A DNA stretch of 64,000 bases. Source: a virus. A program made the position numbers and the translations under genes. The notes below the pieces were generated by a model. That model saw nothing but the letters and a program-made list of their open reading frames with translations. It was not told the DNA's origin and ran no database searches. This document shows, in pieces, positions 6,290 through 64,000 of this stretch (within the stretch, counting starts at the first letter, position 1; every line of letters starts with the position of its first letter). The stretch lies in the IMG/VR virus record IMGVR_UViG_3300026488_000013, positions 103,051 through 167,050 of that record; one strand, given 5' to 3'.

Positions 6290-7720
6290 TTAAAAACTTA
6301 GAGCCAAAGAAATTAAAACAGCATCGGGCGAGATATTTACCCCGACCATATTATTACTTATATCCGTATCGTTGTCGAACCTAGAAACATATTCAAAATA
6401 TTCACTCAATATTGAAAGGAACTTATCATATATAACATCACAATCATAGTTTACTATGTTAGATTTAATCTCTTCGTATTTAGTTAAAAGAATATACATA
6501 TCATCAAAAATATCGGATGAATACTTAACATTGCCGGTATTAGAAACAGTATTTAAAACCATCAAATTGGTAAAAGTCCTAGTAGATAAATTTATCATCC
6601 AACTTGAGAGATAATCGCAAAGAATTTCTTTATTCAGCAGTCCCAATTGTTTACCTATTCCAAAGTAATTTATTTGAATTTGGAATAATTCATTTACTAG
6701 GACTTTAAGGACAGAAACCGAAACATATGTTAATATTGCATCTATTTTTGCAATTATAGAATATATAAGATATGTTTGCAAATTATAGATGTATTTACTG
6801 ACAATATTCAAATTAGATTTTATTTTTGATTTTATTATTTCGTATAATTTATTAACCAACATATCCACAATATACATTTTTGAAGTGTCTATTTTTGCGG
6901 AGGCAGAATCATATTTAAACATCAACGGTATAAACAACGCTAAATCTTGCAAAAGAATATTCGGGTTTATGAAAATATAGTTAGATTTAACAAAATACTT
7001 ATCTATATTAATATATTCTTTTATCTGACCTACAATAATATCATTTATTTGGGAAGATAAATTATTAATATAACTTGTTTTATCCTTTTCCACAACAAAA
7101 CTTTCAAAATTATAGACATTATACAGCTTATTCAAAAATATAAAATCATAAGCGGAGTTCCCTACATTTTCAATTGTATTGTAATAGGTATAAAAATAAA
7201 AATCATAATAATGTGAATGTTCTCGAACAATAAAGTATTTTTTATATCTGCGACTTCCTGTTAAAAGATTATTACTATTAAGAATTGAATTATCGTAATC
7301 TGAACTTAGATAATTAAGAAATAAATCAACGTTATTAATTAATTTACCACCCTTAAACAAATAAAATTCATTAAATCTTTTTAATAAACTTTCTAAATAT
7401 CTATCTGAAATCAGCAAATCAAATATCAAATTTATATCGTTAGGATTTATATAAAGCAACTCACTATCAAATGCAGTTAGATTCAATATATTAGAACTTA
7501 TTTTTGGGTTATAATTAAAATAATATGCACGGCGGATTAATTCTAATATTGACAAATAATTAAAAAAGTTTCGGATTAAACATTTGGAACTATCTTTTAC
7601 ATTAGAAAATATTAAACTATATTTTGGGGAAAAGTCAGTTATTAATCCACATTTTCTTAAATTTTTAACAGTGTTATTTAAAGTAAAAAATTTTGGAATT
7701 GAATATACTGAATATTCCAT
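6290..7720 (-). CDS. Unknown protein between helicase and virion gene
   Basis: 476 codons, rich in Ile, Asn, Tyr and Leu, with no motif I recognise and no signal peptide. Start ATG 7720 lies 18 bases after the stop of the upstream virion gene; no clear ribosome site is visible, so translation may depend on coupling. Same-strand neighbours (putative baseplate protein upstream, helicase downstream) make a virion or baseplate role possible but not shown. Confidence 0.55.
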   Translation of the reverse strand: MEYSVYSIPKFFTLNNTVKNLRKCGLITDFSPKYSLIFSNVKDSSKCLIRNFFNYLSILELIRRAYYFNYNPKISSNILNLTAFDSELLYINPNDINLIFDLLISDRYLESLLKRFNEFYLFKGGKLINNVDLFLNYLSSDYDNSILNSNNLLTGSRRYKKYFIVREHSHYYDFYFYTYYNTIENVGNSAYDFIFLNKLYNVYNFESFVVEKDKTSYINNLSSQINDIIVGQIKEYINIDKYFVKSNYIFINPNILLQDLALFIPLMFKYDSASAKIDTSKMYIVDMLVNKLYEIIKSKIKSNLNIVSKYIYNLQTYLIYSIIAKIDAILTYVSVSVLKVLVNELFQIQINYFGIGKQLGLLNKEILCDYLSSWMINLSTRTFTNLMVLNTVSNTGNVKYSSDIFDDMYILLTKYEEIKSNIVNYDCDVIYDKFLSILSEYFEYVSRFDNDTDISNNMVGVNISPDAVLISLALSF

Positions 7721-7738
7721 TGTTTAAAAAAATTAATC

Positions 7739-8953
7739 TTATATTTTCTTTCTGGTAAATGAAAAATACGATTTTTTATGAATATGTTTATCGTGAGTTA
7801 ATTTTTCGGTTGAAATTGGATAAGCATCCTTATACGGGCGCAATGAATTTATTAATGATGCTAGAGTAGGCTGGTATGAAATTAATTTCTCATCTGTAGG
7901 TGTAAAGGAACTAGCATCTATAGGGTTTGTTAACACATTTTTTGTGTCCAGTGGTTCATCTTTTAAATTTGTATAATCTATCGAGAATTGCGAGTATAAA
8001 TCTACAATGCTAATAGTAAGTTCCAATTTGGTAGGTTGTTTATATGCATTATATACCGTGTTCTGACCACCTCGATTTATAGTGATTGATTGTATTGCTC
8101 CCATAACTATATCCTGCAACCCATATGCTTTAACCCTAACATATAGTGGTATTCCCACAAACCCATATATATTTAATGGGGAACCTAACAATAACAATGC
8201 AATAAGCGGTGCATACACCCATTGATAAAGTATTTCAGGATGTCCATATGGAGAAGATAAAGTAACATTAATGTTTAATGTTCTAGAATATTGAGTATCT
8301 GCCCAAACTTTTGGGAAATCTATTTTTAAACCTCTTGAACCAGCGCTGGCAATTTGAGATAGAAAACTAATAAAATCATTTCCTGTCATCTGTGAAACGG
8401 TTCTATCTATCTCATCAGGGGTAAGATACAATGATTTAGACACCATTTTAAATAATTCAGCTATTCCACCAGTTAATTGTTTTATCTTATTCCCAAAACT
8501 ATCTAGTAATTGTTTTATAGGAATTTCTTCGTAGTTCGATGTAATGCTTTCACTTAATTGTGTATTATCGGTAGCATACAGTCTGATAAAGCTAATGGTC
8601 TTATCATCGTCAATAATTTTAAACATTTTAAGCAATCTATTAAACTGTTTAACCCCCTCGGCATAATCTGGTTCGTATAAATATGTTAATGTATGTTCTA
8701 ATTCCTTTTTAGTATTTTCATCTGTATTTGAATTCCTAATTCTATCTACAATCTTTGACGACGGCTTAGGTATCATAGGAATAATATCTACAGGATGAAG
8801 ATTAGAGAAAATTAGGTTGGTATAATATCCTGTTCCGAAATAGCTTCTGTCTTCTATTAAATTTGACGCATCTATTTCCAAATAAGACATATATGTCCAA
8901 GGAAGACCTGTTTCTATAATGTATTTTCCCGGCCCTATTCTTGTTAAAATCAT
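7739..8953 (-). CDS. Putative virion (tail/baseplate) structural protein
   Basis: 404 codons. The segment from about residue 225 reads like contractile-tail baseplate or tube-cap proteins of large phages: a beta-rich stretch NVTLSSPYGHPEILYQWVYA, a hydrophobic helix APLIALLLLGSP, then YVRVKAYGLQDIVMGAIQSI and a final beta segment ending in a DLYSQF element. This is the pattern (SPYG-x-P ... LALL ... G-x(n)-I-x-S-I) I know from such families, though I cannot name the exact homologue. Start ATG 8953 with GAGGGG upstream. Confidence is moderate for a virion role and low for the precise position. Confidence 0.45.
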   Translation of the reverse strand: MILTRIGPGKYIIETGLPWTYMSYLEIDASNLIEDRSYFGTGYYTNLIFSNLHPVDIIPMIPKPSSKIVDRIRNSNTDENTKKELEHTLTYLYEPDYAEGVKQFNRLLKMFKIIDDDKTISFIRLYATDNTQLSESITSNYEEIPIKQLLDSFGNKIKQLTGGIAELFKMVSKSLYLTPDEIDRTVSQMTGNDFISFLSQIASAGSRGLKIDFPKVWADTQYSRTLNINVTLSSPYGHPEILYQWVYAPLIALLLLGSPLNIYGFVGIPLYVRVKAYGLQDIVMGAIQSITINRGGQNTVYNAYKQPTKLELTISIVDLYSQFSIDYTNLKDEPLDTKNVLTNPIDASSFTPTDEKLISYQPTLASLINSLRPYKDAYPISTEKLTHDKHIHKKSYFSFTRKKI

Positions 8954-8977
8954 TACTTTTCTTAAATCCCCTCTAAA

Positions 8978-10366
8978 TTAAGCAAAAGCCAACACCAAAT
9001 AATCTCTCCATTCATTTGGAATATCTATTCTATAACGGAGTGGCTTCATTTTCATAAAATCTTCATCGTCTAACCATAAATCATATGTCGCTTCTATTCC
9101 GTATTTTTCATTTATCACCAATAATTTTTGCGAGGGTCTTGTTAACCATCCTTTTGAATACGAATATTCATCTACACCTTTTAAAGTTCCATTCATAATT
9201 ATAAATCCTGTCCCATCATATAGCATAGCCGGAACATGGAAATGTCCTACAACATAATATGTCATTGGTATGTTCGGTTGTTTTACATTTGGAAAGAAAT
9301 TAATATTTTGCTTATTTCCAAAATCACGCCGCAATCCATAGAAAGGAATACCACTCCAAGATTTAATCTCGTCGCCATGAGAAAAACAAAATCTAAAACC
9401 TAATATATCTTTAAAAATAAATGGAGACTTGGTTATTTCCCATTTTATGTTTTCATATTTTTGAGTTAATAATGCAGCTATTTGATATGTGATATAATCA
9501 AAAGAATTAAATCTTTTCTTATATTCCTTCTTCTTTGTTATCCTTCCATGATTTCCTACCACTGTAAAAACATTTACCTCGTTAAACACTTTTGACAGTT
9601 CTATTAAAAGGGCCGCAATTAAATAAGCAGCCAAACCTATTTGCTCGGTAATCGTTAAATCAACATTTTTAATCAATTCATCATGTATTATTCCCGATAC
9701 CATATCCCCGCCCAACCAAACATTTATTTTTCTAATTCCATCATTACATTCATATAATTTTTTTATCTTTACAACTTTCTCAAATATTTTCTCAACTCTT
9801 CTTGTAGCAACATTTAAATCAAATTTATTAACATATCCTATTTCTTCAGGTTCTACTATTTCTAATATATGCCAATCAGATAAAAGCAATAAAAATTCCC
9901 TCTTCAATTTATTTTTATCTTCAAAATTTATTTTTTCTCTGTCAGAATAATTTATTTCAAATTTTATTTCATTTAAACTATATTTTAAAAATTCGATTAA
10001 AATTTCGTCAATTAATTTTTTATCATTTTTGTTTTTCTCATCGATTAATTTATTATAAATTTCTTTTTTTAAATTTTTTACATTTTCATTTTTCAATAAA
10101 AATTTTAAAAACTCCTCAAAACATTTTTCGTTCAACAAAATTTGTTTCAAAATTTTATTTAATTTTCTGGCTTTATATTCTCTGATTAAATAATTACTCT
10201 GAATTCTTTTTCTACCAGGAATTAATTTTTCAATTATCTCTTTTGAATAATTTTTTGTTTTAATTTTATTTATTATTTCTAAAATAATTTCTTCCAATAA
10301 ATTAATCATTTCATCATTAATTTTTAAATTGTAATTTTTTAAACATTTTAAAATTATTTCTTTCAT
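8978..10366 (-). CDS. Calcineurin-like metallophosphoesterase (SbcD/Mre11-like core)
   Basis: 462 codons. The phosphoesterase motifs occur in order from about residue 160: SDWH (DxH), GGDMVSG (GD), GNHGR (GNHG), FSHGDE (GH-type) and VGHFHVP (GHxH), together binding two metal ions. The N-terminal 140 residues are very Lys/Ile/Asn-rich and helical. Homologous cores are found in SbcD/Mre11 nucleases and other phosphatases; which substrate this one uses cannot be read from sequence. No SbcC/Rad50-like partner is seen in the window. It is the first gene downstream of a repeat element, and no good ribosome site precedes ATG 10366. Confidence 0.8.
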   Translation of the reverse strand: MKEIILKCLKNYNLKINDEMINLLEEIILEIINKIKTKNYSKEIIEKLIPGRKRIQSNYLIREYKARKLNKILKQILLNEKCFEEFLKFLLKNENVKNLKKEIYNKLIDEKNKNDKKLIDEILIEFLKYSLNEIKFEINYSDREKINFEDKNKLKREFLLLLSDWHILEIVEPEEIGYVNKFDLNVATRRVEKIFEKVVKIKKLYECNDGIRKINVWLGGDMVSGIIHDELIKNVDLTITEQIGLAAYLIAALLIELSKVFNEVNVFTVVGNHGRITKKKEYKKRFNSFDYITYQIAALLTQKYENIKWEITKSPFIFKDILGFRFCFSHGDEIKSWSGIPFYGLRRDFGNKQNINFFPNVKQPNIPMTYYVVGHFHVPAMLYDGTGFIIMNGTLKGVDEYSYSKGWLTRPSQKLLVINEKYGIEATYDLWLDDEDFMKMKPLRYRIDIPNEWRDYLVLAFA

Positions 10367-21549: not shown

Positions 21550-22710
21550 TTAATATAAAGCATTTATTCTCTTCTCCAGGTTTTTGTTTAAATATTTCTG
21601 AACACCGGCCTGGGCGAATTTAATCATGAATTTTGAATTCATTGTTATTGGACTTCCTATATTTTTATCGTTTAGGATAAATGTAGGAACAATATTTACA
21701 CCATATGATACCGCATTAAGTTGAGGTTTTACAACCTTTCCTTGTAGTTTATCATAATATGAATATTTGAAGTTATCCCCTTTCTCATACCAATATGCGG
21801 AGGTTTTCTTTAGTTGTTTCCGCAAACTCATATAATCATCTATAAATCCAACCATTATACCTACTTGGTTGTCGTGTTTTTCAAATAGTGCCCCACTAAA
21901 TGTTAGAACATATTTTTTCAAATATTTCTCTATAAATTCATCGATAGTTATTTCCCTGATTTTAATCTTATTACTGGTCGGATTATCAACTACTATTACT
22001 CTAAACTTTTCCCATTCTTTATCACTTTTTATACCTAAATATAGTTTTAGGTATTCTTTATATTTTCTAATATTACCCTTCGCTACAATCCAAAAGTATA
22101 TCAATTTATTTGTTTCATCATCCTTATATGACAAAAGATGTGTATAGTTTTCTAGAAATGGTATTAATCTGGTTTTTAATACAATGTAATCCTCACCGTT
22201 CATTATTCCATCTAAAGTATATTCGGCAAAAACATACATGAGTTCATCCAATATTTTTAAAGTGAATTTTAGATTGTTTTCTATAATCTCTTTTTTCTTG
22301 TTTGGCTTATACCATTCTACAAACGATAAAATTAGTCGATTAAATGATTCTTTAAACGAATTTTTAAGATTTAAAATCTTAGATTTTAAGACCGTTTTCT
22401 TCTTAGGTTTATCTGTGTTGACAAATTCTTGCACATATTTAGAGAACTTCCTTAATGCATCGATAAGCTTATACGTTTGGGGAGGATATACTCTGGCCCG
22501 AAGAGTAGTGAAGTCTATATTAAACATTTTTACTGTAGAAGGATACATGGATGTGTTGTGAACAAGAATATAATAATCAGATTTTGGGTCTTTGGCAAAA
22601 AATCTTTCAGTATCTTCTACAGAAATATCATATACATAATCATCCTCAATTTCTATAATTTCTATGCTTTCAATTTCGTCAATAAACCAAACTCTTCTTC
22701 TTTCTATCAT
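21550..22710 (-). CDS. DNA polymerase B, middle (palm/fingers) fragment with split-intein C-half
   Basis: 386 codons. Residues 1-52 are an intein C-half: block F VYDISVEDTERFFA and the canonical end YYILVHN. The extein begins TSMYPSTV, which joins the DFDQ end of the exonuclease gene (26.3-27.8 kb) to give DFDQTSMYPST, the family-B motif A in the T4 gp43 style (SFDLTSLYPS). Further on is a motif B-like segment KPQLNAVSYG and a following helix like that in T4 (SKFMIKFAQAGVQKYL). The gene stops at NALY before motif C, which is in a third gene (29.5-32.0 kb). AAAGGGGG precedes ATG 22710. Trans-splicing with the N-terminal gene is inferred. Confidence 0.87.
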   Translation of the reverse strand: MIERRRVWFIDEIESIEIIEIEDDYVYDISVEDTERFFAKDPKSDYYILVHNTSMYPSTVKMFNIDFTTLRARVYPPQTYKLIDALRKFSKYVQEFVNTDKPKKKTVLKSKILNLKNSFKESFNRLILSFVEWYKPNKKKEIIENNLKFTLKILDELMYVFAEYTLDGIMNGEDYIVLKTRLIPFLENYTHLLSYKDDETNKLIYFWIVAKGNIRKYKEYLKLYLGIKSDKEWEKFRVIVVDNPTSNKIKIREITIDEFIEKYLKKYVLTFSGALFEKHDNQVGIMVGFIDDYMSLRKQLKKTSAYWYEKGDNFKYSYYDKLQGKVVKPQLNAVSYGVNIVPTFILNDKNIGSPITMNSKFMIKFAQAGVQKYLNKNLEKRINALY

Positions 22711-25068: not shown

Positions 25069-26307
25069 TCATATAATTAAATTATCCATTGCCTTAGCAA
25101 TCACCCTTATATGGTTCTGTGCGTCAGGTTTTATTCTCTCGTTTATAAAATCTTCAATGAAACGACGCAACCCCGCTATTACAATATTAGTAGATTTGAA
25201 TTGTTGTAATTCATCCCTAGCGGCTTCTTTTTTAAATCCTCTTTTTAATTTATTTTCATATTTTAATATGCGGCTCCACTTATCTGTTATAAGTCCGTCA
25301 AAATATGATACAAGTGTATCTACTTTCCACTCCGGGTTTGCATAATTAATTTCATCCATCAAAATAATAACTTCTGATTTTCTAGTTTTAGTGTATCTAT
25401 CAGAACGTTGTAAGAAATTCAGTGTTTTATGTCTAACTATCTGGTGAGTAGTCACTTTATCGGTTTTTTCAATAATGAAAAACTGGTTTTGCCATTTTCT
25501 AATCTTCTCGGCCAGTGCTAATTTATATTCATCTGATGATTTAGATATTCTATAATAATTGGGTATCCTGATAAAAAATAAATTCATATATTCAAACTCA
25601 CATGAAGAGTGATTTTTGATAGTCGGACTTATCTTATAAACGATAGGATTATAAAATTTCTCTGTTATCCATTTTTTGCCCTTTAATTTTTGTATTAACT
25701 CTTTATTATATATATCTTCTAAATTATGTTGGTATCTTTCGAAATTTGTAAATGCGTCCGAATTAAAAATATCGTTTAGCACGTTAGATAAATACGTGAA
25801 CAAATCTCCGACCCAGTAGGTCGGTATATTTTTATAATATTCACAAATATTTATGTTATTGAGATTTAGAAATTCATCTTTTTTATAAGCGTTTCTGATA
25901 TATTCTGCAAACGCCCTATCAGAGATTATTATTAAATCAAAATTCTTATCTATTTCATCTACTCTTGCCGCACCGTAAGGCAGTTTCAACAATGATTTTG
26001 TTATAACATGTGAATCTGGGACAATAAAATAAGTATATGTGGTTCCTGTTATGGATGTATGGCCGTTGTATATCAAATTAACAACAAAATTAAAAATATT
26101 ATATGGTTCATTTGTATTTTTAACTTCCGCATCCAAATATAAATCTAAAATATCGCCTTTATTATAATAACAAACTCTGGCACCCAAATAGTGCCATAAT
26201 TTCTTGTTCCAAAATATATATTGAAGTATATGCTTTCTATTACCAGCAGGAAATAAAAAGTTTAATACCTTTTCAAATGCTTTTATTTCTTCTTTTGTCC
26301 AAGTCAT
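25069..26307 (-). CDS. thyX: Flavin-dependent thymidylate synthase, enlarged
   Basis: 412 codons, against roughly 220-270 in usual ThyX. Core signatures are present: GHTSITGTTYTYF (the H-x-S-x(n)-F strand, about residue 87), HQIVRHKTLNFLQRSDRY (the RHR-x(7)-S-x-RY flavin/dUMP motif, with Lys replacing the third residue, about 293), and a C-terminal AQNHIRVIAKAMDN matching AQ-x-EIR. The extra length is an insertion of about 150 residues between the first two motifs. It makes dTMP from dUMP using methylene-tetrahydrofolate and FAD. AGGAGGGTTAAC precedes ATG 26307. It is located beside the PolB N-terminal gene. Confidence 0.85.
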   Translation of the reverse strand: MTWTKEEIKAFEKVLNFLFPAGNRKHILQYIFWNKKLWHYLGARVCYYNKGDILDLYLDAEVKNTNEPYNIFNFVVNLIYNGHTSITGTTYTYFIVPDSHVITKSLLKLPYGAARVDEIDKNFDLIIISDRAFAEYIRNAYKKDEFLNLNNINICEYYKNIPTYWVGDLFTYLSNVLNDIFNSDAFTNFERYQHNLEDIYNKELIQKLKGKKWITEKFYNPIVYKISPTIKNHSSCEFEYMNLFFIRIPNYYRISKSSDEYKLALAEKIRKWQNQFFIIEKTDKVTTHQIVRHKTLNFLQRSDRYTKTRKSEVIILMDEINYANPEWKVDTLVSYFDGLITDKWSRILKYENKLKRGFKKEAARDELQQFKSTNIVIAGLRRFIEDFINERIKPDAQNHIRVIAKAMDNLII

Positions 26308-26327: not shown

Positions 26328-27839
26328 CTAAATTAAAATCAACTTATCTCCTATTTTTAATTTGCCAGCATCCTTTAATTCTATTCTTTGTTTTTTATCG
26401 TTATAAACAAAAATTGAATGATTTTCTGTAACTTTTATTACAGCTCCAGATTTTGTTTTTATTTTCAATATTTTGTATTTTCTTTTATGTTGTATTTTCC
26501 CTTTTATCTTTTTCCAAACAACATTACCATTTTTATCTAATGTTAAAGTTTCATCTCCTTCCTCAAACTTATATTCGCCAATCGGAACCTCTCTAATTAC
26601 TCCATTTTCTTTTTTAATCAATATTAATTGGTCATAAGTTAATGATTGGTCAAAATCCATTATTAGTCCTGTTATATATCTGGGTTTGGTTTTTTTAACA
26701 TATGCTCCGAATATTTTTGTTGAAAAATATGTCTCTTTAAATACATCCATTTGCGATGGATATGGGAATTTTTCATATGGCAAAAATGACCTGATTTCGG
26801 AATTATCTCTTTCGGTTAAGATATTACGCATAATGTCTTCGCCATATTTTGTTGCCCCACGGTATGCCATTTTAAACAGTGATTTGGACATTCGTCGTAA
26901 AGAATTATAAGTGTTTATAATGTCCAACTTTTTATCCAGGGCTTTAACCAATAAAGTATCTACAATGTTATAAAAAATATAATCTTCTATATGTTCTTTA
27001 TATGCCAAATCGAAATCTTTCCCTTGTGATGTTTTTAATTCAACCTTTTTAATGCCGAGCTCTTGTTTAGAAATATAGTCCAATTCATATGTTTCTTGAG
27101 TATCACCAAAACCTAACCCTTCGCCGGGCTTATACATGTATAAAATATCAACAAACATCAAATCTGGTGCTTGCAATCCATAGGCTTTCGAATATTGCAC
27201 TGTTTTAAATTTGGATATTACTTCGCCCGGGTTGTCTACTCCTAGATTAATAAGTCTGTTATAAATATATGGGAAGTCAAAATCATCCGAATAAAACCCG
27301 GCTATCGTCCAGACATTTTGCTTTTGAATTAAGTCGAATACATCTTTTATCATTTGCTTCTCTGCATCTATACACGGTTCGCCGCAGGTCTTAGCTTGCA
27401 GATTTTTATTATTCTTCGGAGTATAAATCTTTAATATTACTTTTATATCCTCTTCCGTCTCGAAAATTTCTTTAAGTTTTGAATAATGAGTATTTATAGA
27501 TTTTTCCAAACACTCTCTTAATTCATTCGGATTTTCGATAAAATATTTGTGTTGTTTATATTTGGGGTTTAACAAACAAAAAGCATAAACTTCATTTTTA
27601 TGAGAAAATGCCAATGAAATCAATACTATTGGATATTCCGCCTTGGAAGGTTCGGGAAACACTCCAACAAATCTAGTAAATACCTCTATGTCTATGTATG
27701 CTTTCCTAAAAAATTGTGGGGCATCATAATTATCTTTTTCTTTTCTCTTTTGATACCACTCCAAAGCACGCTGTCTGTCGGGCGAGTATTCTAATGAATA
27801 AAATTGCCATGGTTTTAATTTTTTCAAATTAGCTGCCAT
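26328..27839 (-). CDS. DNA polymerase B, N-terminal 3'-5' exonuclease fragment ending in split-intein N-half
   Basis: 503 codons from ATG 27839 (an in-frame ATG 15 bases upstream overlaps the GGGGG ribosome site). Exonuclease motifs: Exo I AYIDIEVF (Asp50/Glu52), Exo II GFYSDDFDFPYIYNR and Exo III YNIVDTLLV, as in T4 gp43-like enzymes. The extein ends GLIMDFDQ; then a 105-residue intein N-half begins SLTYDQLILI (block A with Ser1) and contains block B (KVTENHSIFVY, TxxH). Together with the 52-residue C-half at 22.7 kb this makes a mini-intein without an endonuclease domain. The mature polymerase would need trans-splicing at motif A. Confidence 0.88.
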   Translation of the reverse strand: MAANLKKLKPWQFYSLEYSPDRQRALEWYQKRKEKDNYDAPQFFRKAYIDIEVFTRFVGVFPEPSKAEYPIVLISLAFSHKNEVYAFCLLNPKYKQHKYFIENPNELRECLEKSINTHYSKLKEIFETEEDIKVILKIYTPKNNKNLQAKTCGEPCIDAEKQMIKDVFDLIQKQNVWTIAGFYSDDFDFPYIYNRLINLGVDNPGEVISKFKTVQYSKAYGLQAPDLMFVDILYMYKPGEGLGFGDTQETYELDYISKQELGIKKVELKTSQGKDFDLAYKEHIEDYIFYNIVDTLLVKALDKKLDIINTYNSLRRMSKSLFKMAYRGATKYGEDIMRNILTERDNSEIRSFLPYEKFPYPSQMDVFKETYFSTKIFGAYVKKTKPRYITGLIMDFDQSLTYDQLILIKKENGVIREVPIGEYKFEEGDETLTLDKNGNVVWKKIKGKIQHKRKYKILKIKTKSGAVIKVTENHSIFVYNDKKQRIELKDAGKLKIGDKLILI

Positions 27840-27920
27840 GCTCAAGACCCCCATACTTAGGTGTTAACAAAAAAATAAATTCAAAACAAAGGACGTATAC
27901 AAAGTATTTTTATTTTTTTC

Positions 27921-28613
27921 TTAGAAATCGAAATCATCGTCTTCCATTTCTGAGCTATCAGAAATATCATCTATAACATTTTCTATTTGTTCTACATTTT
28001 TATTTGGTTGCTTGGATTTGTTATTACCCATTCTTAAATTTCCATTTTTATTTTCATCCGACACAAATTCATATTTATATTTTTGTAAATAATCTGTAAT
28101 TATAAATTCAAACACGCTTTTTAAATATGAAAATGCAACTAGTGGTATAGCAATCGAATATGTTTCGGGTGGATTTTTAGTTTTATCTATTACTGTTATA
28201 GTAAGTCCATTTTGGGTTAATATAAGATTATACGGCCTATTTGGACGATAAATTGATATAGAAATAGATTTACCATGCTCATTTTCTCTTTCTTGTATAG
28301 ATTCAGGTTTTACTATTTGTTTTGCTAAATATTTAAATCTCTTCGCAAATTTGTCAAAAGATATTATTCTTGGATATTCCTCTAAAATCCATTTTATAAA
28401 ACTTACTTCCAATGTGGATAATTTTATAGTAACCTTATTTTCAATTATTTGATTATTGTTTTCTACTTGTCTGAATATTGGAACTTTCCTATTATCTTCA
28501 ACTTGTTTATGAGACACAGGTTTATATATTGTGAGATATATTCCTTGGCTCGATACGGATACATCTATGCGTGCCCGCTGTGTTACAAACAATTGCTTAA
28601 CATTTACAGCCAT
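27921..28613 (-). CDS. Single-stranded DNA-binding-like protein with acidic C-tail
   Basis: 230 codons from ATG 28613, preceded by AAAAAGGAGGTCGAT; the frame continues 23 codons upstream but the ribosome site decides the start. The body contains two repeats of similar sequence (VSSQGIYLTIYKP and ILTQNGLTITVIDK, each followed by a helix LEVSFIKWILEEY / LVAFSYLKSVFEF), suggesting an internal duplication of a small beta-sheet/helix unit. The end is a disordered linker and the tail MEDDDFDF, like SSB tails that recruit partners. ssDNA binding is inferred from the tail and the position next to PolB; the fold itself was not identified. Confidence 0.5.
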   Translation of the reverse strand: MAVNVKQLFVTQRARIDVSVSSQGIYLTIYKPVSHKQVEDNRKVPIFRQVENNNQIIENKVTIKLSTLEVSFIKWILEEYPRIISFDKFAKRFKYLAKQIVKPESIQERENEHGKSISISIYRPNRPYNLILTQNGLTITVIDKTKNPPETYSIAIPLVAFSYLKSVFEFIITDYLQKYKYEFVSDENKNGNLRMGNNKSKQPNKNVEQIENVIDDISDSSEMEDDDFDF

Positions 28614-28644
28614 AAAAATCGACCTCCTTTTTTTTTGTTCTATA

Positions 28645-28661
28645 CGATTAATATCCATACA
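28645..28661 (-). promoter_or_regulatory. TATGGATATTAA promoter-like motif upstream of the SSB-like gene
   Basis: GTATGGATATTAATCG on the coding strand, about 32 bases before ATG, here with a normal ribosome site in between. This copy suggests that the motif is a promoter and not a translation signal. Confidence 0.55.
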
Positions 28662-28702
28662 ACTTATCAAAAGAAAAAACAAGAAAACAGAAATAACAAA
28701 AA

Positions 28703-29512: not shown

Positions 29513-32035
29513 TTATGGAATTAAAAAATTAAAAAAATAACCAGAATTAGAATGTTCCGTTTTAATAGCCGAAATAATTTTGTCAAAATTTTTTATTTTT
29601 TCATCTAATACCTTTTCTCTTTGTGTCTGAAAATCTATCTCTATACCAACTTCTTTCAATTTGTCCAATAGGAATTTGGGTTTTATTCCCGGCGGGACAA
29701 AAATAACATTTATTTTTTCCTTTATCCACTGTAAAGGATTTTTCATTGTAAATATCTCCTTTAATTGATAACCCGACAACTCGGTTTTTTTCTTGGTTTT
29801 CAATATTTCGTCTATTCTTTTTTTCAACTTTAATGGATTAGTTATTTTAATAGAAAGTCTGTATGATTTTTTACCGGGGCGCAATTCATCCTTAAAAATT
29901 GTATTCCAAAATTTGGCTGCTAAAACATACGCAGGTTCCTTTTTATAATTTGCCTTAGACCATGAGCTGGGTATTCCGATATATTTTAAGTTTAATTCTC
30001 TAACACTCTCGTTATATCTATTTACCCAATACATTTTCCTTTCAATATATACTGCAGGCAGTTTTTCGATTTCTCTTCTATAATCTATAAATGTTTGAAT
30101 AATATCCATTTGTAGTTCCTTAGTAAATGGGGCCGCATCGGAGCGAACAACCTCAAATCCGGTAATTTTAACTTTGGGTGGGTCATATAAAACTTTATCA
30201 TCCATTAACATATTCACAAAATATCTTTTTTTAGCATCAATAAATGCTATCGCATCCATAACAATTTCTGTTTTGAAATCTAATGTGTTCCATTCCGGAG
30301 ACACATTACAATAATTCAAAACTTCCCCTTGCCATCTTTGCTTTAGATAATCGTTGATTTCTATAGCCAACGGTTTTATAAAATCTTCATATACCTTTTT
30401 AACTATTTCTGGTTTTGATAAATCCCAACCTCTTTCTAATATCCTAGTGTAATTATCAATAAACACAAATAATGAATCAGTGTCTGAATACAGAATATTC
30501 GGAATATTGTTATCTTTCTCAACATCCATAAAGAATGTCGGTGTTGTTATTATATTTTCTTCATCATCATTGATATCAAATACTGCGGTTTCACCCGTCG
30601 CAAATGGTCTATATCCAGAGTATTCTTCAATTTTATTTTCCAATTTGGTCTTAATCTGTAATTTATTAAACTCATACTCCAATTCTTCTAAAACATAATG
30701 TTTCCTTTTATACATTTCAGTATGCGATTCTATTATGTCTTTAAATTCGTCTAGCTTTGAACGCTGTAAATCTTTATAAAATTTGTAATCATATATTATT
30801 TCCGAATTTAGATTCTCACGGTTTTCAATAAAAGAAATTTCTTTTATATCGTTGGTTCTATCCGTAAAATACACTGTATGGCTAAAAGGGATTTTCCAAT
30901 AATAGATTTCATCCGTATCTTTTTTAGTAGTTATAAACAGATATTCGTTTGTTTCCTGAAGAATATTAATATCTAACAACAAGTATTCATCTGGTATTTC
31001 ATCGGGAGAACTTACCTTAAATACATTAATATCTTCCTGCTCAAAATTATTGTTTGTTTTCCCTGGCCTTGATGCAGATTTAATATGTTTTATTTCTTCT
31101 TGTAAAAATGAGAAGAATTTTTCATATTCAGGCGGAGTATCTATATTTTCACGTATATATTTTGATGGGTGAGTTAAATAATACACTTTTATATTTTTTT
31201 CATTAATTAATTGCTGGAGTTGCTCCGAGGATTCTATTAAATTCCTATTTTCACCTTTCCCTAAAACAACAATTATATCTGGGTCAAACTGATTTATTTC
31301 TTCTATCAGATTATTGACACAGAAGTTCTTAAAAATATCGATTAACGGAACTTCTGAGACATTTTTCAATGTTTCTTGGTTAGAAGTTGAACATTTTATG
31401 GAGTTGGTAAAAATATATCTACAATTCAATTGTTCGGTATATTTTCTTAACAATTGACCTGCTTTTCCAACAAAAGGCTCGCCTCTCTTTGCTTCTTCTG
31501 TCCCCGGATTTATCCCAACAAAAAGTATAGTAGGTTTGTCGATATTACTATTAAAAATTTTATAAGAAACTTTCCTTAAATCCTTATTTAAAAGTGGACA
31601 GTTCAAACAATATTTAGAATAAATATTTTCATATTTTTTATACTTATTCCTATAGTACAGAACAAAACTATCCTCTATATTTTTGTTATTGTCAATTTCT
31701 GATAAAACTGGATGTGAATAATTGTTGATTGGATTCTTAGTATAAGGTAGATTCTTTAATTCGTCTAGGTTAAATTCGCCGGGATTATTGAAGTATAAAG
31801 GGATAATTTCATTTAAAAAATAAACGATTAAATCCTGAAGTTTATATTTATTGTGAGCACTTTTATTTAGGTCTAACAATTTAATAAAAATATTATTAAG
31901 TCGAGGGGAATTAGAAAATATTCTAAACAGTTGCTTCAATACGAAACTATAATTATCTCTTATTATATCGATTTCGTCGTTATTTAGCTTTTCTCCATTA
32001 AAAGGTTTTACAATCAGGTCTAACAACTGTCGCAT
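29513..32035 (-). CDS. Fusion of family-4-like uracil-DNA glycosylase with C-terminal palm/thumb fragment of DNA polymerase B
   Basis: 840 codons. Residues about 140-320 look like a [4Fe-4S] family-4 UDG: Cys143 and Cys146 (CLNC), motif GINPGTEEAKRGEPFVGKAG (174-193), TNSIKC (Cys215), Cys239, LGKG, and THPS (His289). Residues about 510-840 are the rest of PolB: NILYSDTDSLFVF is motif C with both catalytic Asp (516-521), followed by KTEIVMDAIAFIDAKKRYF and YKKEPAYVLAAKFWN in the thumb. Motifs A and B are in the gene at 21.6-22.7 kb. No intein is seen at this second break, so the pieces presumably associate non-covalently. ATG 32035 has GAGGA upstream. Confidence 0.85.
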   Translation of the reverse strand: MRQLLDLIVKPFNGEKLNNDEIDIIRDNYSFVLKQLFRIFSNSPRLNNIFIKLLDLNKSAHNKYKLQDLIVYFLNEIIPLYFNNPGEFNLDELKNLPYTKNPINNYSHPVLSEIDNNKNIEDSFVLYYRNKYKKYENIYSKYCLNCPLLNKDLRKVSYKIFNSNIDKPTILFVGINPGTEEAKRGEPFVGKAGQLLRKYTEQLNCRYIFTNSIKCSTSNQETLKNVSEVPLIDIFKNFCVNNLIEEINQFDPDIIVVLGKGENRNLIESSEQLQQLINEKNIKVYYLTHPSKYIRENIDTPPEYEKFFSFLQEEIKHIKSASRPGKTNNNFEQEDINVFKVSSPDEIPDEYLLLDINILQETNEYLFITTKKDTDEIYYWKIPFSHTVYFTDRTNDIKEISFIENRENLNSEIIYDYKFYKDLQRSKLDEFKDIIESHTEMYKRKHYVLEELEYEFNKLQIKTKLENKIEEYSGYRPFATGETAVFDINDDEENIITTPTFFMDVEKDNNIPNILYSDTDSLFVFIDNYTRILERGWDLSKPEIVKKVYEDFIKPLAIEINDYLKQRWQGEVLNYCNVSPEWNTLDFKTEIVMDAIAFIDAKKRYFVNMLMDDKVLYDPPKVKITGFEVVRSDAAPFTKELQMDIIQTFIDYRREIEKLPAVYIERKMYWVNRYNESVRELNLKYIGIPSSWSKANYKKEPAYVLAAKFWNTIFKDELRPGKKSYRLSIKITNPLKLKKRIDEILKTKKKTELSGYQLKEIFTMKNPLQWIKEKINVIFVPPGIKPKFLLDKLKEVGIEIDFQTQREKVLDEKIKNFDKIISAIKTEHSNSGYFFNFLIP

Positions 32036-39919: not shown

Positions 39920-40759
39920 TTATACGAACCCCATGTCGTCTTCATAAGAAGATATGTTTCCAAAATCATATATTGCAATTTCATAATCAAAAATCGTTTT
40001 ATATATTTGCTTACTATTAAAATTGAAACATAGCATCAGCGTCTCATTTTCTTTATTATATTCTGTGAATATATTTATACGCTCGGTTTTGGAATCGGGA
40101 TATTTGACCTTTAATAAATGAACGTATTCAACAAATGTATATCTATCGGGATTTTGAAAAATAATATTCTCGAGTTTATTTATGTTTGTTGGTAATTCAT
40201 CTTCTAACACTAACAATGCTCCGCCGCTACTAAAAGCTATGGGTTTATAAATATTTCCATTTCTTTCAAAATAAACTCTTAGATATTCCTCATTTTTGTT
40301 AACATTCAAAAACTTACCTAATAGTGTCCCGCTTATTTTATATGTTGGCTCGTTGTTGATAATTTTGAGTATTTCTCTACTTAATTCCCTTTTATTTTCA
40401 AACTCACATTCATCTATTATTGCTGCGGGAGTATTAATTGATAAATTTCCACTTTCAAATATATAAGTGCTATTATCATAAGTTATCATCAGTTCAGAAT
40501 TACCCTCGAATAATTCTTCGGCTTTTCTTAACACACTGATAACATCAACAATATTTATTGTGTGTAGCGTGCCGGTTTTAAATTCGAACACATTTGGAGG
40601 AAATTTAACTACCCGCCCTATTCCAAAATCAGCAATAATATCCTCACCCATTTGTGTAATTGTTAAAACATCATCTTTTTTATATCCAAGATTATTCAAA
40701 ATTTTCCTCAAGTCAGAAATCACAGAATAACTAACTGTAGCAATTACATTCTCTGACAT
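39920..40759 (-). CDS. Probable DNA sliding clamp
   Basis: 279 codons, the size of PCNA or T4 gp45 with a short extension. The layout is that of a two-domain clamp: a first unit with alternating strands and one helix (ISDLRKILNNLGYKKDDV, FELKTG-like strands), a central connecting region, and a second such unit ending with the acidic tail YEDDMGFV. Sequence similarity to PCNA is weak; the call leans on the layout and on position between the DnaG-type primase and the RFC-like gene cluster. ATG 40759 has GGAGGT joined to the AAAACTGTTTT palindrome. Confidence 0.5.
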   Translation of the reverse strand: MSENVIATVSYSVISDLRKILNNLGYKKDDVLTITQMGEDIIADFGIGRVVKFPPNVFEFKTGTLHTINIVDVISVLRKAEELFEGNSELMITYDNSTYIFESGNLSINTPAAIIDECEFENKRELSREILKIINNEPTYKISGTLLGKFLNVNKNEEYLRVYFERNGNIYKPIAFSSGGALLVLEDELPTNINKLENIIFQNPDRYTFVEYVHLLKVKYPDSKTERINIFTEYNKENETLMLCFNFNSKQIYKTIFDYEIAIYDFGNISSYEDDMGFV

Positions 40760-43979: not shown

Positions 43980-46900
43980 TTAAATTCCTGGGTCTAATCC
44001 TAAGGAATACATGACTGCTCTAAATAACTCTTTGGAACCGGTATCTCCTCTTGGATATGTTTCGGGGCCTTTTCCATTATTTACTATGTATGAGTAAACA
44101 TAATTTTTAGCAATGTGGTCGTCCGCCTGAACAGTCAAGAATTCTTTCAACACTTCCGAATCATCGCCTAATCTGTTTAATAATGCTTGGATGGTTAATG
44201 TATCCAACGATTGTGAAGCTTTTTCACCTTCCTTGGATTCACCTTTCACACCCTGTCCGATTATGTTATACTTACCTCTAGAACGAAAACCCATCATAAT
44301 ATCCGGCATATGTTCCAATATTGTTACATATGCAAATCCAACAGCTATGGGTCTTTCGGTAAAAGCTTTTAGGGAAGGTATATATATCCTCTCCAAGAAA
44401 GGAATATTCAAAATATTTTCCATTGTAAACCTAATGTCTTCTTCTTTTATTTCACTGAAAGGCACCGCTATCCAAATAAAAACAGGGTCATGTTTTGGGT
44501 CTTTAATAGATTTACATATTTGCCTAAATTCTTCATCTGGTATATTAACTACACTGTCGATTATATTTTTAACAACTTTCTTACTCTCATCTGTTTCAGG
44601 AATTGACCTAACAAGATTAGAATATACGTCAATTACCAATTTTTTAATATCTTTGGTTTTTTCATTATTTTCAACCATTTCTTTAACTCTTTTATTAAGG
44701 AAATACATTATTTTGCCAATTTGTATTTCTTTGAAGAAATTAGCATTTTTACGTCCAATATTGGATAGTGGATTGTGTATCCAATCTATTTCAATTTTCG
44801 TTATTTCTGAAATAGGTTTTTCATCTAGTTCTATTATTCCGGTATCGACACCTTTATTACCGCCACGGAATACAAATTTATCGCCCTTACTGGGTTCTCT
44901 ATCTGCTTCAATTAAAAACATAATAAGTGCGCCCTTAAATTCATTTCCCTTCCAAGTATGCCCGCCTTTGACAAACATAGATGTATCGATAGTATCTTCA
45001 AATGAATAATCATCTTCCCCGTTAATTTGTTTTGCTAAATCAATTATACCTTTATATTTATTCACCATTCTTTTCCAGACCGTTTCTATAGTTTTAGGAG
45101 CTTTACCATTTATGTAAATTCTAACTTCTTTTAAAACTCCATCTGCCGGTGAACGAATAGCAATTCCATCTGATTCTTTAAATATACCTTGTTCGTTTGC
45201 CATAAACTCAATATCTTCAACAGATGCGGCCTTTTCTTCAGGCATTAAACCATTTTGTTCAAGATATTCTTCCAATGTATCGTTATACTTAAATTTCAAT
45301 AAAATATCTCCGAATTTAACAGGTGTATTTTCTTCATAAACAAATTTATCTACTATTGCGTCTGGTGGCACAATAACAATTACTTCTTTATATCGTTTGT
45401 GCTTAAAACTGTTTAATGCATCTTTTGATGCCGCCCATCCATCTTCATAAACTTCACCTCTGTAAGTGAATAACGCAACCGAAACGTTTTTTCCATATGC
45501 ATAAATTCCCTTTCTTAATTGTTGTGATGCTGCAAGAATCTGCCCCTTTTCAATTTTATCACCTACCTTAACGGTAGGTTCTAATTTAACAGGCATAAAA
45601 ATACCACGTTTAATTCTAGCCAATCTGGGCATTATATTATATATCTTTCTAGTTCCGTCTTCGTATTTAACTACTATATATTTACCCTCTTTAATATCTT
45701 CAACAACACCATTCTTTTCTGCTCTAATTGCAAATCTTTGAGAAACAATCTGTGGTATCAAAAATTCCGAACCCGACGCAACCAGCGGAATATCAGGATT
45801 TTCTATTGGGATAGTTTGTCTCAATTGTTGTGCCATTTTAATTGTTCTATCGTGGTCAATAGATTGGATATATGGGGCCAAAGATTCTCCTATACCCAAA
45901 GTTTCGTATCCTTTTATATTCGATAAGTCATATTTAGATAAGAAGAATCCATATTTATCAGAAATCAACGCCGTCCAGGTTAATTGGTTATTTGAACCTA
46001 CATTAGAATATTCATTGGTATCTAATGCAGATATATTCTGAAAATGTGCGGTTACATGTTTACCAGTTTTAGGGTCTTTTTCAAAAGGTATAAGTCTATG
46101 TTTCAAAGATAGTGCATCATTAGGAAGTCCACCTATTCCTTTGGGTGTTATTCTCGTAGACACATTAAGTTCATCAATAGGATTAACAGGTTCAGTGTAT
46201 TGTAATAAAGATTCACCTAACAATAGTTGTTGAATAACATAATCTGGATTAATATAGTATTTATCCATGTATTTTTCATCAATTTTACCGGATTCTTTTA
46301 ATCCTAAGGCTCTTTTTTCCAATTCATGTTTTGCCTGAGCAATCTGTTTGTATAATATATGCAATACAACTTCGGATAACCTTGTTCTATGTATTCTTAA
46401 ATCGGTGGGTTTATATACTTTTGAGTTAAATAAAGCTGTTAGCAGTTCATTTGTTAGAATGTTAAAGTAGTTTGTCGATTTCCCCTCAGCTTTCAGTATT
46501 TCCTTTGTAACAGGGTCAATCATATATCTTCTAAACAACAAATTAATTCTTGCTGCACCATTTCCGAATAATTTATCCATCCATTCATCCCTTATCTTTT
46601 GATTATTTTCAAATTCTTCAAACTTATATTTGTCTAAATATAAATTATTCACAGCAAATATACCGTTAACAATGTATTCCTCTTTTATGTTATCGGGGTA
46701 AAGATTAAGATATTTATTGTTAGACAACGCAATTGTTGTATATGCGTTTTTGTCGGGAGAATCTGATATTTCATATTCAATCCCTAATTTCTCTAAGGAT
46801 TTTATTATTCCAAAATTACCAAATAAAAACAGAATATATGGCATTTTGAAACCACCGAGATAAATTTCAACATACGGCAATTTGGAAGTTGTAGATAATT

Positions 46901-48788
46901 TATCATTCGGGTTGATTTTTCTTATTAATTTGGTTAAGTAGTTAATCAAATATTCATTTATTTTTTCTTTAAGTTCGGTTTCTTCACCAGAAGTTTTATC
47001 TTTTAAAATAACCGCATCCTTATTAGCATCATAAATGACCTCTTTATCATCACATTCCAAAACTAGGAATTTTGCACTGCCGATAGGATTAAATCCATAT
47101 AATTTACATCCGTCGATAAATTCTACATTATATTTAATGGGTGCCAGGTATTCCGCAATTTCCTCTGGATGTTCTATTTCTTCGATATTTTTAATCAATT
47201 TAGGATACTTTTGATGAATATAATCTATCAACGAATTAATATCATTGAGAGATAATTTATAGTTCTTAAGATTTAAGGTTACGATAGCATAATATGTTAA
47301 CAATCTTGCTTTATTTTTATCTGTAACGGTAATTGGCTTTAGAAATCTTTGATTAGCTAAAACATAAGTCTTTCCATTCAATTTGAAATATCTTTGGTTA
47401 ATAAGAGCGGGGATTTTTATCTGCAAGTCATATGATTCGCCGGTTTTTTCATTTTCCACAGTTACTGTATATAGCCAAAATCTGTTTAGTTTGTCATCGA
47501 TAAGTTCTCTTTTAATGTTCTTAATTCTTTTCTTAAGAGGAACAGTATCTGGAATATCTTCTAAAGATTTTAGCAGTGTTCTAATATATGTATCTATTCT
47601 TTCGCCAAACTCTTTTTCATGTAGATTTGTAATAGTAGATTTTAAAGATAAAACTTTATCAGGATTATATATTGTTTGAAATCTTTTATCTACGGGTTTG
47701 GGAATTATTTCTTCATAAACGATAATATGCCGGCGCAAAATTTCAAAAATATCCTCGGGAGTTAATTTATCCAAATTAACATTTATTAAATTTAATTTTT
47801 CTTTCAAAATTTCGTTTAATAATTTATAAGATTTTTCCTTATCAATTATTTTAATTTGTTTTTCTTCCACATAGTCTTTTGTCAATTCTTTAATAAAATT
47901 TTCTATTTTGTTGTGTTCCTCAGCATTAATTGTATTTTCAATTTTACTTAAAATATTCACTTTAAACGCTTTTATTAGCGTATTCACTTGTTCGTCTAAT
48001 TCATTGTCGGTTAATATTTTTGCGGCGGTTATGTTTAATTCGTTGATTAACTCTTTAGAATATTTCAAAATGTCTAATAACGAATATTTGTTTACTACAA
48101 ATTTACCATTTACAGAATTAGCAAAGATGCTATATATTGCCCTGCTTGAAAATGGGACAACATAATAAATATTGTTTTCAAAATTATCAATACCTTCCAA
48201 TTCGTAAGATTTGGATTTTATCCAAGGTATGAAACTATTTTTAATAAACTCTAAATCTTTGTCATTGTGAGGATTTATTACCAGTATCGGAACAATATCA
48301 ATAGGAGTGTTTATTTTATTTTCTTTATAAAGTTTGTCAAAATATTCTTTTGCATTTTTTAATTCCTGAATAAATATTTCATACCAAATATCCCAGAATT
48401 TTTCTCTACTCTCTTCATATTTTTTAAATACTGGCGAAAGCTGATAATAAATCGGAAATAAATCAACTATTAGGTTTTTAAAGAATGTTATATTATTAAT
48501 TGCCCTTATGGGTTTTATAAGTTTTAACCATCTGTTAGTTTTGTATTGTGAAACTAACTCTTCATATGTTTGAAGAGTATTTATTTTGACACCATAAATG
48601 TTCTTATTATGAATGGGGACATAAAGTTTATCGAATTGGGTTTTAAGGATATTTAATCTGGGAAGTAGTTCGTATGCTGTAGAATTATATTGAGGAAATA
48701 ATGGAAATAAAATAATTACGGCGGGAGGTTTTACTGTAAGAAGAGATACTTTTTTATTAGGAGAATTTATTTTTCTTATATCTATCAT
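43980..48788 (-). CDS. DNA-directed RNA polymerase beta subunit (phage-encoded, divergent)
   Basis: 1602 codons in one piece, longer than bacterial RpoB (about 1340). Landmarks of the C-terminal half: GESLAPYIQSIDHDRTIKMA (fork-loop region like SPFIQHDDANR), VASGSEFLIPQIVSQRFAIR, a hybrid-binding barrel, PSKGDKFVFRGGNKGV (about 1299; matches GDKMAGRHGNKGV) and IDWIHNPLSNIGRKN (matches the conserved NP-x(n)-S-R-MN stretch). It ends YPRGDTGSKELFRAVMYSLG. The N-terminal half is strongly diverged. GTGAGGT lies before ATG 48788. With the beta-prime pieces at 10.6 and 48.9 kb it makes a phage RNA polymerase, as in phiKZ-type phages. Confidence 0.9.
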   Translation of the reverse strand: MIDIRKINSPNKKVSLLTVKPPAVIILFPLFPQYNSTAYELLPRLNILKTQFDKLYVPIHNKNIYGVKINTLQTYEELVSQYKTNRWLKLIKPIRAINNITFFKNLIVDLFPIYYQLSPVFKKYEESREKFWDIWYEIFIQELKNAKEYFDKLYKENKINTPIDIVPILVINPHNDKDLEFIKNSFIPWIKSKSYELEGIDNFENNIYYVVPFSSRAIYSIFANSVNGKFVVNKYSLLDILKYSKELINELNITAAKILTDNELDEQVNTLIKAFKVNILSKIENTINAEEHNKIENFIKELTKDYVEEKQIKIIDKEKSYKLLNEILKEKLNLINVNLDKLTPEDIFEILRRHIIVYEEIIPKPVDKRFQTIYNPDKVLSLKSTITNLHEKEFGERIDTYIRTLLKSLEDIPDTVPLKKRIKNIKRELIDDKLNRFWLYTVTVENEKTGESYDLQIKIPALINQRYFKLNGKTYVLANQRFLKPITVTDKNKARLLTYYAIVTLNLKNYKLSLNDINSLIDYIHQKYPKLIKNIEEIEHPEEIAEYLAPIKYNVEFIDGCKLYGFNPIGSAKFLVLECDDKEVIYDANKDAVILKDKTSGEETELKEKINEYLINYLTKLIRKINPNDKLSTTSKLPYVEIYLGGFKMPYILFLFGNFGIIKSLEKLGIEYEISDSPDKNAYTTIALSNNKYLNLYPDNIKEEYIVNGIFAVNNLYLDKYKFEEFENNQKIRDEWMDKLFGNGAARINLLFRRYMIDPVTKEILKAEGKSTNYFNILTNELLTALFNSKVYKPTDLRIHRTRLSEVVLHILYKQIAQAKHELEKRALGLKESGKIDEKYMDKYYINPDYVIQQLLLGESLLQYTEPVNPIDELNVSTRITPKGIGGLPNDALSLKHRLIPFEKDPKTGKHVTAHFQNISALDTNEYSNVGSNNQLTWTALISDKYGFFLSKYDLSNIKGYETLGIGESLAPYIQSIDHDRTIKMAQQLRQTIPIENPDIPLVASGSEFLIPQIVSQRFAIRAEKNGVVEDIKEGKYIVVKYEDGTRKIYNIMPRLARIKRGIFMPVKLEPTVKVGDKIEKGQILAASQQLRKGIYAYGKNVSVALFTYRGEVYEDGWAASKDALNSFKHKRYKEVIVIVPPDAIVDKFVYEENTPVKFGDILLKFKYNDTLEEYLEQNGLMPEEKAASVEDIEFMANEQGIFKESDGIAIRSPADGVLKEVRIYINGKAPKTIETVWKRMVNKYKGIIDLAKQINGEDDYSFEDTIDTSMFVKGGHTWKGNEFKGALIMFLIEADREPSKGDKFVFRGGNKGVDTGIIELDEKPISEITKIEIDWIHNPLSNIGRKNANFFKEIQIGKIMYFLNKRVKEMVENNEKTKDIKKLVIDVYSNLVRSIPETDESKKVVKNIIDSVVNIPDEEFRQICKSIKDPKHDPVFIWIAVPFSEIKEEDIRFTMENILNIPFLERIYIPSLKAFTERPIAVGFAYVTILEHMPDIMMGFRSRGKYNIIGQGVKGESKEGEKASQSLDTLTIQALLNRLGDDSEVLKEFLTVQADDHIAKNYVYSYIVNNGKGPETYPRGDTGSKELFRAVMYSLGLDPGI

Positions 48789-63567: not shown

Positions 63568-64000
63568 TGACACTCCCCCTGCTTTAGCGGGGGTTTCTCA
63601 GGGTAGGCAAAACCCACCCTGAGCTACTCAGGGAGTATCTCACTCCCCGAGGGCGTGTCAATCCATCTACGAGGAGCTTTACACTCCCCGATACTTTTTC
63701 TATAAACCTTTTGAAGAGGTTTATCGCTCCCACCCCGTCCCTGTGGTAGCTAAAACCACATCTGGGGCAAATGTAGTTCCTATCCTTTGGCTTGTATTTA
63801 TTCCCACATACAGGGCATAGTTGGGTGGTGTAGCTTTCATCTTCCTCTACCACCACTATGCCCTCTCCCTCTAGCTTGTATTTAAGCTTTTGCAAAAGTT
63901 TGTTAAATCGCCACATTAAGTGGATTTTCTGATTGGCGTTTTTGTTGTGTTTCGCCCTATCCCTTATTCCCTTAACCCTGCCTATTACCACCGTCCCTAT
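63568..64000 (-). mobile_element. IS200/IS605-family TnpB element, right end (continues past window)
   Basis: Markedly more GC than the surrounding phage DNA. The right end is a perfect hairpin on the minus strand, CCCCCGC TAAA GC(A)GGGGG, followed by AGTGTCA at the boundary. The tnpB stop codon lies in the hairpin loop, so the 3' end of tnpB overlaps the region that in this family gives the guide-type omega-RNA. The left end and any tnpA are outside the window. Confidence 0.8.
63584..64000 (-). CDS. tnpB: TnpB RNA-guided nuclease, C-terminal part
   Basis: 139 codons, open at the window edge (a GTG at 63991 is internal, not a start). It shows the TnpB end: IGRVKGIRDRAKH, NQKIHLMWRFNKLLQKLKYK, EEDESYTTQLCPVCGNKYKP, zinc ribbon CPVCG ... 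CPRCGFSYH, and RDGVGAINLFKRF with the final RuvC Asp. The position usually holding the second RuvC Glu (IxxEDL) is Gly-Arg here; the Glu residues of EEDESYT may replace it, as known for TnpB subfamilies with a shifted Glu. It would cut DNA matching its omega-RNA guide. Codon use is much more GC-rich than in phage genes. Confidence 0.85.
   Translation of the reverse strand: MGTVVIGRVKGIRDRAKHNKNANQKIHLMWRFNKLLQKLKYKLEGEGIVVVEEDESYTTQLCPVCGNKYKPKDRNYICPRCGFSYHRDGVGAINLFKRFIEKVSGSVKLLVDGLTRPRGVRYSLSSSGWVLPTLRNPR

What the first reader, a model, noticed from the sequence alone, without database searches (positions are those of the whole stretch)
29513..32035. Family-4-like uracil-DNA glycosylase fused to the motif C/thumb piece of a DNA polymerase
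Four Cys in the family-4 [4Fe-4S] arrangement (143, 146, 215, 239), GINPG and THPS precede the polymerase motif YSDTDS in one frame of 840 codons. A glycosylase attached to the catalytic fragment of a split replicase could remove or sense uracil at the fork. With ThyX and RNR encoded, the phage controls its own dUMP/dTMP. I do not know of a described fusion of this kind.
Basis: partly seen in the sequence, partly recalled or inferred. Interest (0 to 1): 0.82.

Follow-up and report, generated by a model that had tools for sequence, protein, structure and literature searches.

The report
Uracil-removal domain on split phage polymerase
A phage builds its DNA-copying enzyme from three separate genes, two of them apparently stitched together by a self-splicing intein, and the third piece carries a built-in domain of the kind that finds uracil in DNA, so each copying machine would carry its own uracil detector.

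Summary
Window 29513-32035 (minus strand) is one open frame of 840 codons. Residues 143-321 form a family-4-like UDG domain with four Fe-S-type cysteines and most uracil-pocket residues, but motif 1 is GINPG instead of GE[A/G]PG. Residues 501-840 are the motif C/thumb part of a T4 gp43-like family B polymerase. Profiles, AlphaFold2 and Foldseek agree.

The rest of the replicase is encoded by two other genes. PolN (26328-27854) carries the exonuclease and the N half of a split intein; PolM (21550-22710) carries the C half plus palm A and fingers. The predicted splice product aligns nearly end to end with one uninterrupted protein of a distant 285-kb phage (E=2e-61). There motif C/thumb is also a separate gene, but the UDG is a third gene 4 kb from it.

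UDG-replicase fusions are not new: UDG-PolA fusions are common (phiLo, PDB 9QHS), and UDG-Pol III alpha fusions turned up here. None of the UDG or T4-like PolB loci examined was UDG-PolB. New here are the family B partner, the fusion to a split catalytic fragment, and a three-gene PolB with a split intein. Activity, splicing and the role of residues 325-500 are untested.

The parts
29513..32035 (-). PolC: whole ORF, UDG + linker + PolB motif C/thumb, 840 aa
31631..32035 (-). PolC residues 1-135: helical N-terminal extension of unknown role
   Evidence: AlphaFold2 helices, pLDDT about 85 to residue 80; no family match
31070..31618 (-). PolC residues 140-322: family-4-like UDG domain (C143, C146, C215, C239; E181, F188, N211, H289; motif 1 GINPG)
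30536..31069 (-). PolC residues 323-500: linker; beta-rich unit at about 340-390, then a predicted helix at 428-473. Possibly the missing PolB N-terminal domain
   Evidence: weak profile signal
29516..30535 (-). PolC residues 501-840: PolB palm with motif C (YSDTDS 516-521) and thumb
26646..27854 (-). PolN residues 1-403: PolB 3'-5' exonuclease and start of palm, up to ...IMDFDQ
   Evidence: PF03104 E=2e-9, phrog_262, profile 106-354
26331..26645 (-). PolN residues 404-508: split intein N half (SLTYDQ...TENH...), ends at the stop codon
   Evidence: TIGR01445, PF14890
22555..22710 (-). PolM residues 1-52: split intein C half, ends ...LVHN|T
   Evidence: TIGR01443
21553..22554 (-). PolM residues 53-386: PolB palm motif A (TSMYPS) and fingers motif B (KPQLNAVSYG)

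Best explanation
The phage's T4 gp43-like family B replicase is made from three genes. PolN and PolM are joined by a split intein into an exonuclease-palm-fingers chain (strongly inferred). That chain ends just before motif C and pairs non-covalently with PolC, which supplies the motif C aspartates and the thumb (inferred). PolC also carries a family-4-like UDG domain (shown), so each assembled replicase would carry a UDG. Most likely the UDG keeps its Fe-S cluster and uracil pocket and surveys template or product DNA for uracil next to the active site, alongside the phage's RNR, ThyX and dUTPase-like gene, as part of keeping uracil out of its DNA (inferred). The beta-rich linker may hold the PolB N-terminal domain that PolN lacks (suggestive only). 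The fusion belongs to a lineage whose PolB was already split at motif C, because a distant jumbo phage has the same split with UDG and motif C/thumb as separate neighbouring genes.
For: UDG fold and Fe-S cysteines. Pocket residues equivalent to Tth UDGa E47, F54, N80, H155 retained (PMC5387724). Complementary polymerase pieces covering gp43 profile positions 106-553 and 548-820. Intein halves complete when joined. Spliced product aligns residues 12-726 of 737 with one uninterrupted ORF of the jumbo phage, 207 bits, E=2e-61. Shared split point and separate motif C/thumb gene there; tree support 100/100. Only one UDG in the genome. ThyX, RNR, dUTPase-like genes. Split gp43 of Aeromonas phage 25 co-purifies and is active (PMC2988022).
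Against: Motif 1 is IN instead of the EG doublet; E41 and G42 changes in Tth UDGa cost two to three orders of magnitude (PMC5387724). No AP endonuclease of the tested families in the phage record. No experiment; no close relatives. The palm/thumb model has modest confidence.
Confidence: 0.55

Rival explanations
1. The UDG domain is mainly a DNA-binding, processivity or assembly module and no longer excises uracil, in the way vaccinia D4 (a UDG) serves the family B polymerase E9 through A20.
For: Motif 1 altered at a catalytically important doublet. Vaccinia D4 precedent with a family B polymerase (PMC3946371, PMC10253040). UDG domains recur on unrelated replicases.
Against: H289, N211, E181 and F188 are retained, which a pure tether would not need. 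A clamp loader is encoded, so a clamp probably provides processivity.
Confidence: 0.28
2. The fusion has no functional coupling: UDG and motif C/thumb were neighbouring genes joined by deletion, and both parts work as they did when separate.
For: In the jumbo relative the two are separate genes 4 kb apart on one strand with HNH-AP2 genes between them. The UDG is joined through a long linker that is poorly ordered in most of its length.
Against: UDG fusions to replicases recur across polymerase families, which chance joining explains poorly.
Confidence: 0.12
3. The reading frame is an assembly or sequencing artefact that joins two genes.
For: One metagenome contig only; no close relative in IMG/VR.
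Against: Codon usage favours one frame throughout all 840 codons. The linker is long, coding in character and partly structured, unlike a spurious join.
Confidence: 0.05

Closest known systems
UDG-PolA fusion polymerases of phages (Thermus phage phiLo, PDB 9QHS; Lysinibacillus phage LysYB1; Microcystis phage Mel-JY34)
   Same: Family-4-like UDG domain N-terminal to the phage's replicative polymerase in one protein
   Different: Those polymerases are family A with the PolA exonuclease between; here the polymerase is family B and only its motif C/thumb part is fused
UDG-Pol III alpha fusions in viral contigs (L141, L181, L190)
   Same: UDG joined to a replicative polymerase
   Different: Family C polymerase, whole subunit; UDG at the C-terminus in two of the three
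Split PolB of jumbo phage IMGVR_UViG_3300021520_000002 (L240/L268/L270)
   Same: Same split between fingers and motif C; nearest polymerase relative found
   Different: No intein, and UDG is a separate gene
Split gp43 (43A/43B) of T4-like phages
   Same: Replicase encoded in pieces; the pieces of Aeromonas phage 25 co-purify and are active (PMC2988022); annotated in Acinetobacter phage Acj61; Alishewanella phage Slickus01 also splits just before motif C
   Different: No UDG; no intein noted
Vaccinia D4/A20/E9 holoenzyme
   Same: A UDG is a working part of a family B replicase (PMC3946371)
   Different: D4 is a separate protein held by A20, and not a family-4 Fe-S enzyme (own knowledge)

Membership tests
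Family 4 UDG (UDGa) | UDG superfamily fold | tested here: met
   PF03167 62.9 bits, cut-off 24.3; Foldseek to 1l9g and 1ui0
Family 4 UDG (UDGa) | Four cysteines of the Fe-S arrangement | tested here: met
   Cys 143, 146, 215, 239 in conserved columns
Family 4 UDG (UDGa) | Motif 1 GE[A/G]PG | tested here: not met
   GINPG; 45 of 54 rows have GEAPG or GEGPG
Family 4 UDG (UDGa) | Pocket residues equivalent to Tth E47, F54, N80, H155 | tested here: met
   E181, F188, N211, H289 (PMC5387724)
Family 4 UDG (UDGa) | NCBIfam cut-offs for TIGR00758 and NF040953 | tested here: not met
   46.8 against 125.3 and 53.5 against 250 bits
Family 4 UDG (UDGa) | Fe-S cluster and uracil excision | not testable with these tools
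   Needs protein
T4 gp43-like family B polymerase | Exonuclease, motif A, motif B and motif C together | tested here: met
   DIEV and YNIVD in PolN; DFDQ|TSMYPS across the splice seam; KPQLNAVSYG in PolM; YSDTDS in PolC
T4 gp43-like family B polymerase | Pfam PF00136 cut-off | tested here: not met
   10.8 bits against 23 on PolC; phrog_262 and gp43 profiles do match
T4 gp43-like family B polymerase | N-terminal domain | tested here: inconclusive
   Absent from PolN; weak signal in the PolC linker
Naturally split intein | Intein N half at the end of one ORF and C half at the start of another, with splicing motifs | tested here: met
   Ser1, TENH, terminal HN, +1 Thr; TIGR01445 and TIGR01443
Naturally split intein | Splice seam restores a known protein | tested here: met
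   Spliced product aligns across the seam with an intein-free ORF
Naturally split intein | Splicing activity | not testable with these tools
   Needs protein
UDG-PolA fusion polymerase | Family A polymerase or PolA exonuclease after the UDG | tested here: not met
   The polymerase part is family B; no PolA exonuclease signal in the linker

The most novel reading that the evidence does not exclude
A family B replicase assembled from three genes, by split-intein ligation at motif A and non-covalent pairing at motif C, in which the piece holding the motif C aspartates cannot enter the enzyme without bringing an Fe-S uracil-DNA glycosylase, so that uracil detection is coupled to polymerase assembly and synthesis, with the linker supplying the polymerase's missing N-terminal domain in trans.
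Probability: 0.35. Interest if true: 0.8.

Novelty: new variant of a known kind. Interest (0 to 1): 0.62.

Why it matters
It adds family B to the replicase families found joined to a UDG: family A is common, and family C was seen here in three contigs. That pattern points to a recurring advantage of tying uracil recognition to replication, as in poxviruses, where a UDG is part of a family B holoenzyme. It also offers a natural three-part polymerase with a split intein at motif A, which makes assembly-controlled replication and UDG-polymerase coupling testable with purified parts.

Tried and rejected
(1) Linker as a remnant PolA 3'-5' exonuclease: suggested by 'YLLLDINI...IPFSH' and by one BLAST extension to residue 413 (L145); rejected as unsupported by profile and shuffle tests. 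(2) Linker as PolB N-terminal domain: kept as suggestive only. In one search, 4 of 340 decoys and 53 of 1000 shuffles scored as high. In one search, 1 of 200 column shuffles did, but on an alignment made by hand with that domain in mind. MAFFT aligned the linker with the jumbo phage's UDG tail in a different register, and that tail alone is not significant. (3) UDG domains of the two phages as one clade: the 100-row tree does not group them, but holding them together is not rejected (p-AU 0.56). Unresolved. (4) Close relatives: PolC, PolM, PolN and the terminase alone found none in IMG/VR; a last scan found only the jumbo phage again. (5) Gut 'Bacteriophage sp.' UDG hits: flanking genes look bacterial; not used. 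(6) The mixed UDG+PolB alignment A3 lacked coherent conserved columns and was not used. (7) A repeated PDB search gave nothing new. (8) RNA families and tRNAs in the window: none.

Full report
Observation. The ORF at window 29513-32035 lies on the minus strand, starts with ATG and runs 840 codons without a stop. Pfam finds a UDG domain at residues 167-308 (E=4.6e-17), and PHROGs finds a DNA polymerase match at residues 507-819 (E=8e-16). Codon usage supports one frame over the whole length, so a frameshift near residue 330 is unlikely, though reads were not available.

UDG domain. The nearest solved structures by sequence are T. thermophilus UDG (1ui0) and T. maritima UDG (1vk2, 1l9g). AlphaFold2 on residues 1-520 with 53 viral relatives gives pLDDT of about 90 or more over most of residues 171-320, and Foldseek ranks the same enzymes first. 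The four cysteines and the equivalents of Tth UDGa E47, F54, N80 and H155 (E181, F188, N211, H289; the equivalence is by my alignment) are conserved. Motif 1 is GINPG. In Tth UDGa the E41-G42 doublet at this place matters strongly: E41Q and G42D lower k2/Km about 900-fold and 90-fold (PMC5387724). Some natural relatives have GQNPG or GRNPG. The domain is therefore family-4-like, probably folded and able to hold a cluster, with uncertain activity.

Polymerase pieces. A profile of nine T4-like gp43 proteins (836 positions) places spliced PolN+PolM at 106-553 and PolC at 548-820, with almost no overlap. The palm/thumb model of PolC matches T4 and RB69 gp43 best (E 3e-5), although that model is of modest confidence overall. 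PolN ends in an intein N half and PolM begins with an intein C half; joined in silico, the halves match archaeal inteins and a PolB16 intein. Joining the exteins gives ...IMDFDQ|TSMYPSTVK..., and this product aligns over nearly its whole length (residues 12-726 of 737) with one uninterrupted ORF of a 285-kb phage (207 bits, E=2e-61). I regard this as strong evidence for trans-splicing, not proof.

The relative. In that phage (L240, L268, L270) exonuclease-palm-fingers is one gene of about 700 codons. Motif C/thumb is a separate gene of 289 codons starting about 20 residues before motif C. UDG is a third gene of 512 codons with a GLNPGTEEVK motif 1. PolC's motif C/thumb matches the 289-codon gene at 86.7 bits, against at most 52 bits for the nine gp43 references. 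A tree of the reassembled polymerases joins the two phages at 100/100. The split between fingers and motif C is therefore most simply inherited. The UDG gene and the motif C/thumb gene are 4 kb apart on one strand there, with two HNH-AP2 endonuclease genes between them, one beginning 17 bases after the UDG gene. Whether the fused or the separate state came first cannot be told from two genomes. The UDG domains alone are too divergent to show a common origin.

Linker. Residues 325-500 link the two parts. AlphaFold2 gives a small beta-rich unit at about 340-390 with pLDDT near 80. Both phages' exonuclease pieces lack the gp43 N-terminal domain, and among the profiles tried the linker scored best against that domain, but not at a convincing level. 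I give it about even odds.

How common are UDG-replicase fusions? Of the 80 best IMG/VR loci for this UDG, 37 are UDG-PolA fusions, three are UDG-Pol III alpha and one is UDG-5'-3' exonuclease. Over both UDG scans 55 distinct UDG-PolA ORFs were seen and no UDG-PolB. None of the 80 nearest T4-like PolB loci carries a UDG in the polymerase ORF. Named phages with UDG-PolA include phiLo, whose polymerase structure is 9QHS. These scans are capped and do not prove absence elsewhere. From own knowledge, TIGR00758 is described as homologous to the N-terminus of the SPO1 DNA polymerase; this was not checked here.

Function. The genome encodes RNR (both subunits), ThyX and a dUTPase_2-like protein (25.9 bits, cut-off 22.9), consistent with keeping uracil out of DNA. 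No trimeric dUTPase, dCMP deaminase, endonuclease IV or ExoIII-type match was found, so abasic-site processing would depend on the host or on unrecognised genes. Best reading: uracil surveillance tied to the replicase. Main rival: a DNA tether, as vaccinia D4 acts for E9 (PMC3946371, PMC10253040). What is shown: the fusion, the fold (predicted), the split and the intein anatomy. What is inferred: splicing, assembly, Fe-S cluster, uracil recognition and coupling.

Novelty. UDG-replicase fusion as such is known. I found no other case on a family B polymerase, none on a split catalytic fragment of one, and no other three-gene PolB with a split intein; hence a new variant of a known kind.

Noticed in passing
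   Followed up: yes
L141:7091-10489, L181:7013-10537, L190:9872-13975: Viral contigs with UDG fused to DNA polymerase III alpha (C-terminal in two, N-terminal in one).
   Followed up: partly
L177:8810-10477: UDG fused to the C-terminus of a 5'-3' exonuclease.
   Followed up: no
L240:5344-11804: Jumbo phage with separate UDG and PolB motif C/thumb genes, two HNH-AP2 endonuclease genes lying between them.
   Followed up: yes
L005:10510-11478: A dUTPase_2-like protein of 322 aa in the same virus record, outside the window.
   Followed up: partly
window 43980-48788: A 1602-aa protein with weak RNA polymerase beta-subunit similarity; another ORF in the record (contig 7330-9348) looks beta'-like by eye.
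   Followed up: no
window 25069-26307: ThyX of 412 aa; only the C-terminal third matches the ThyX profile, so it has a long unassigned N-terminal part.
   Followed up: no
window 27921-28682 and 39920-40759: Unassigned proteins next to replication genes: one ends in an acidic DDFDF tail like an SSB, the other looks like a possible sliding clamp; neither has a family match.
   Followed up: no
window 63584-63991: C-terminal part of a TnpB/Cas12f-like protein at the contig end.
   Followed up: no
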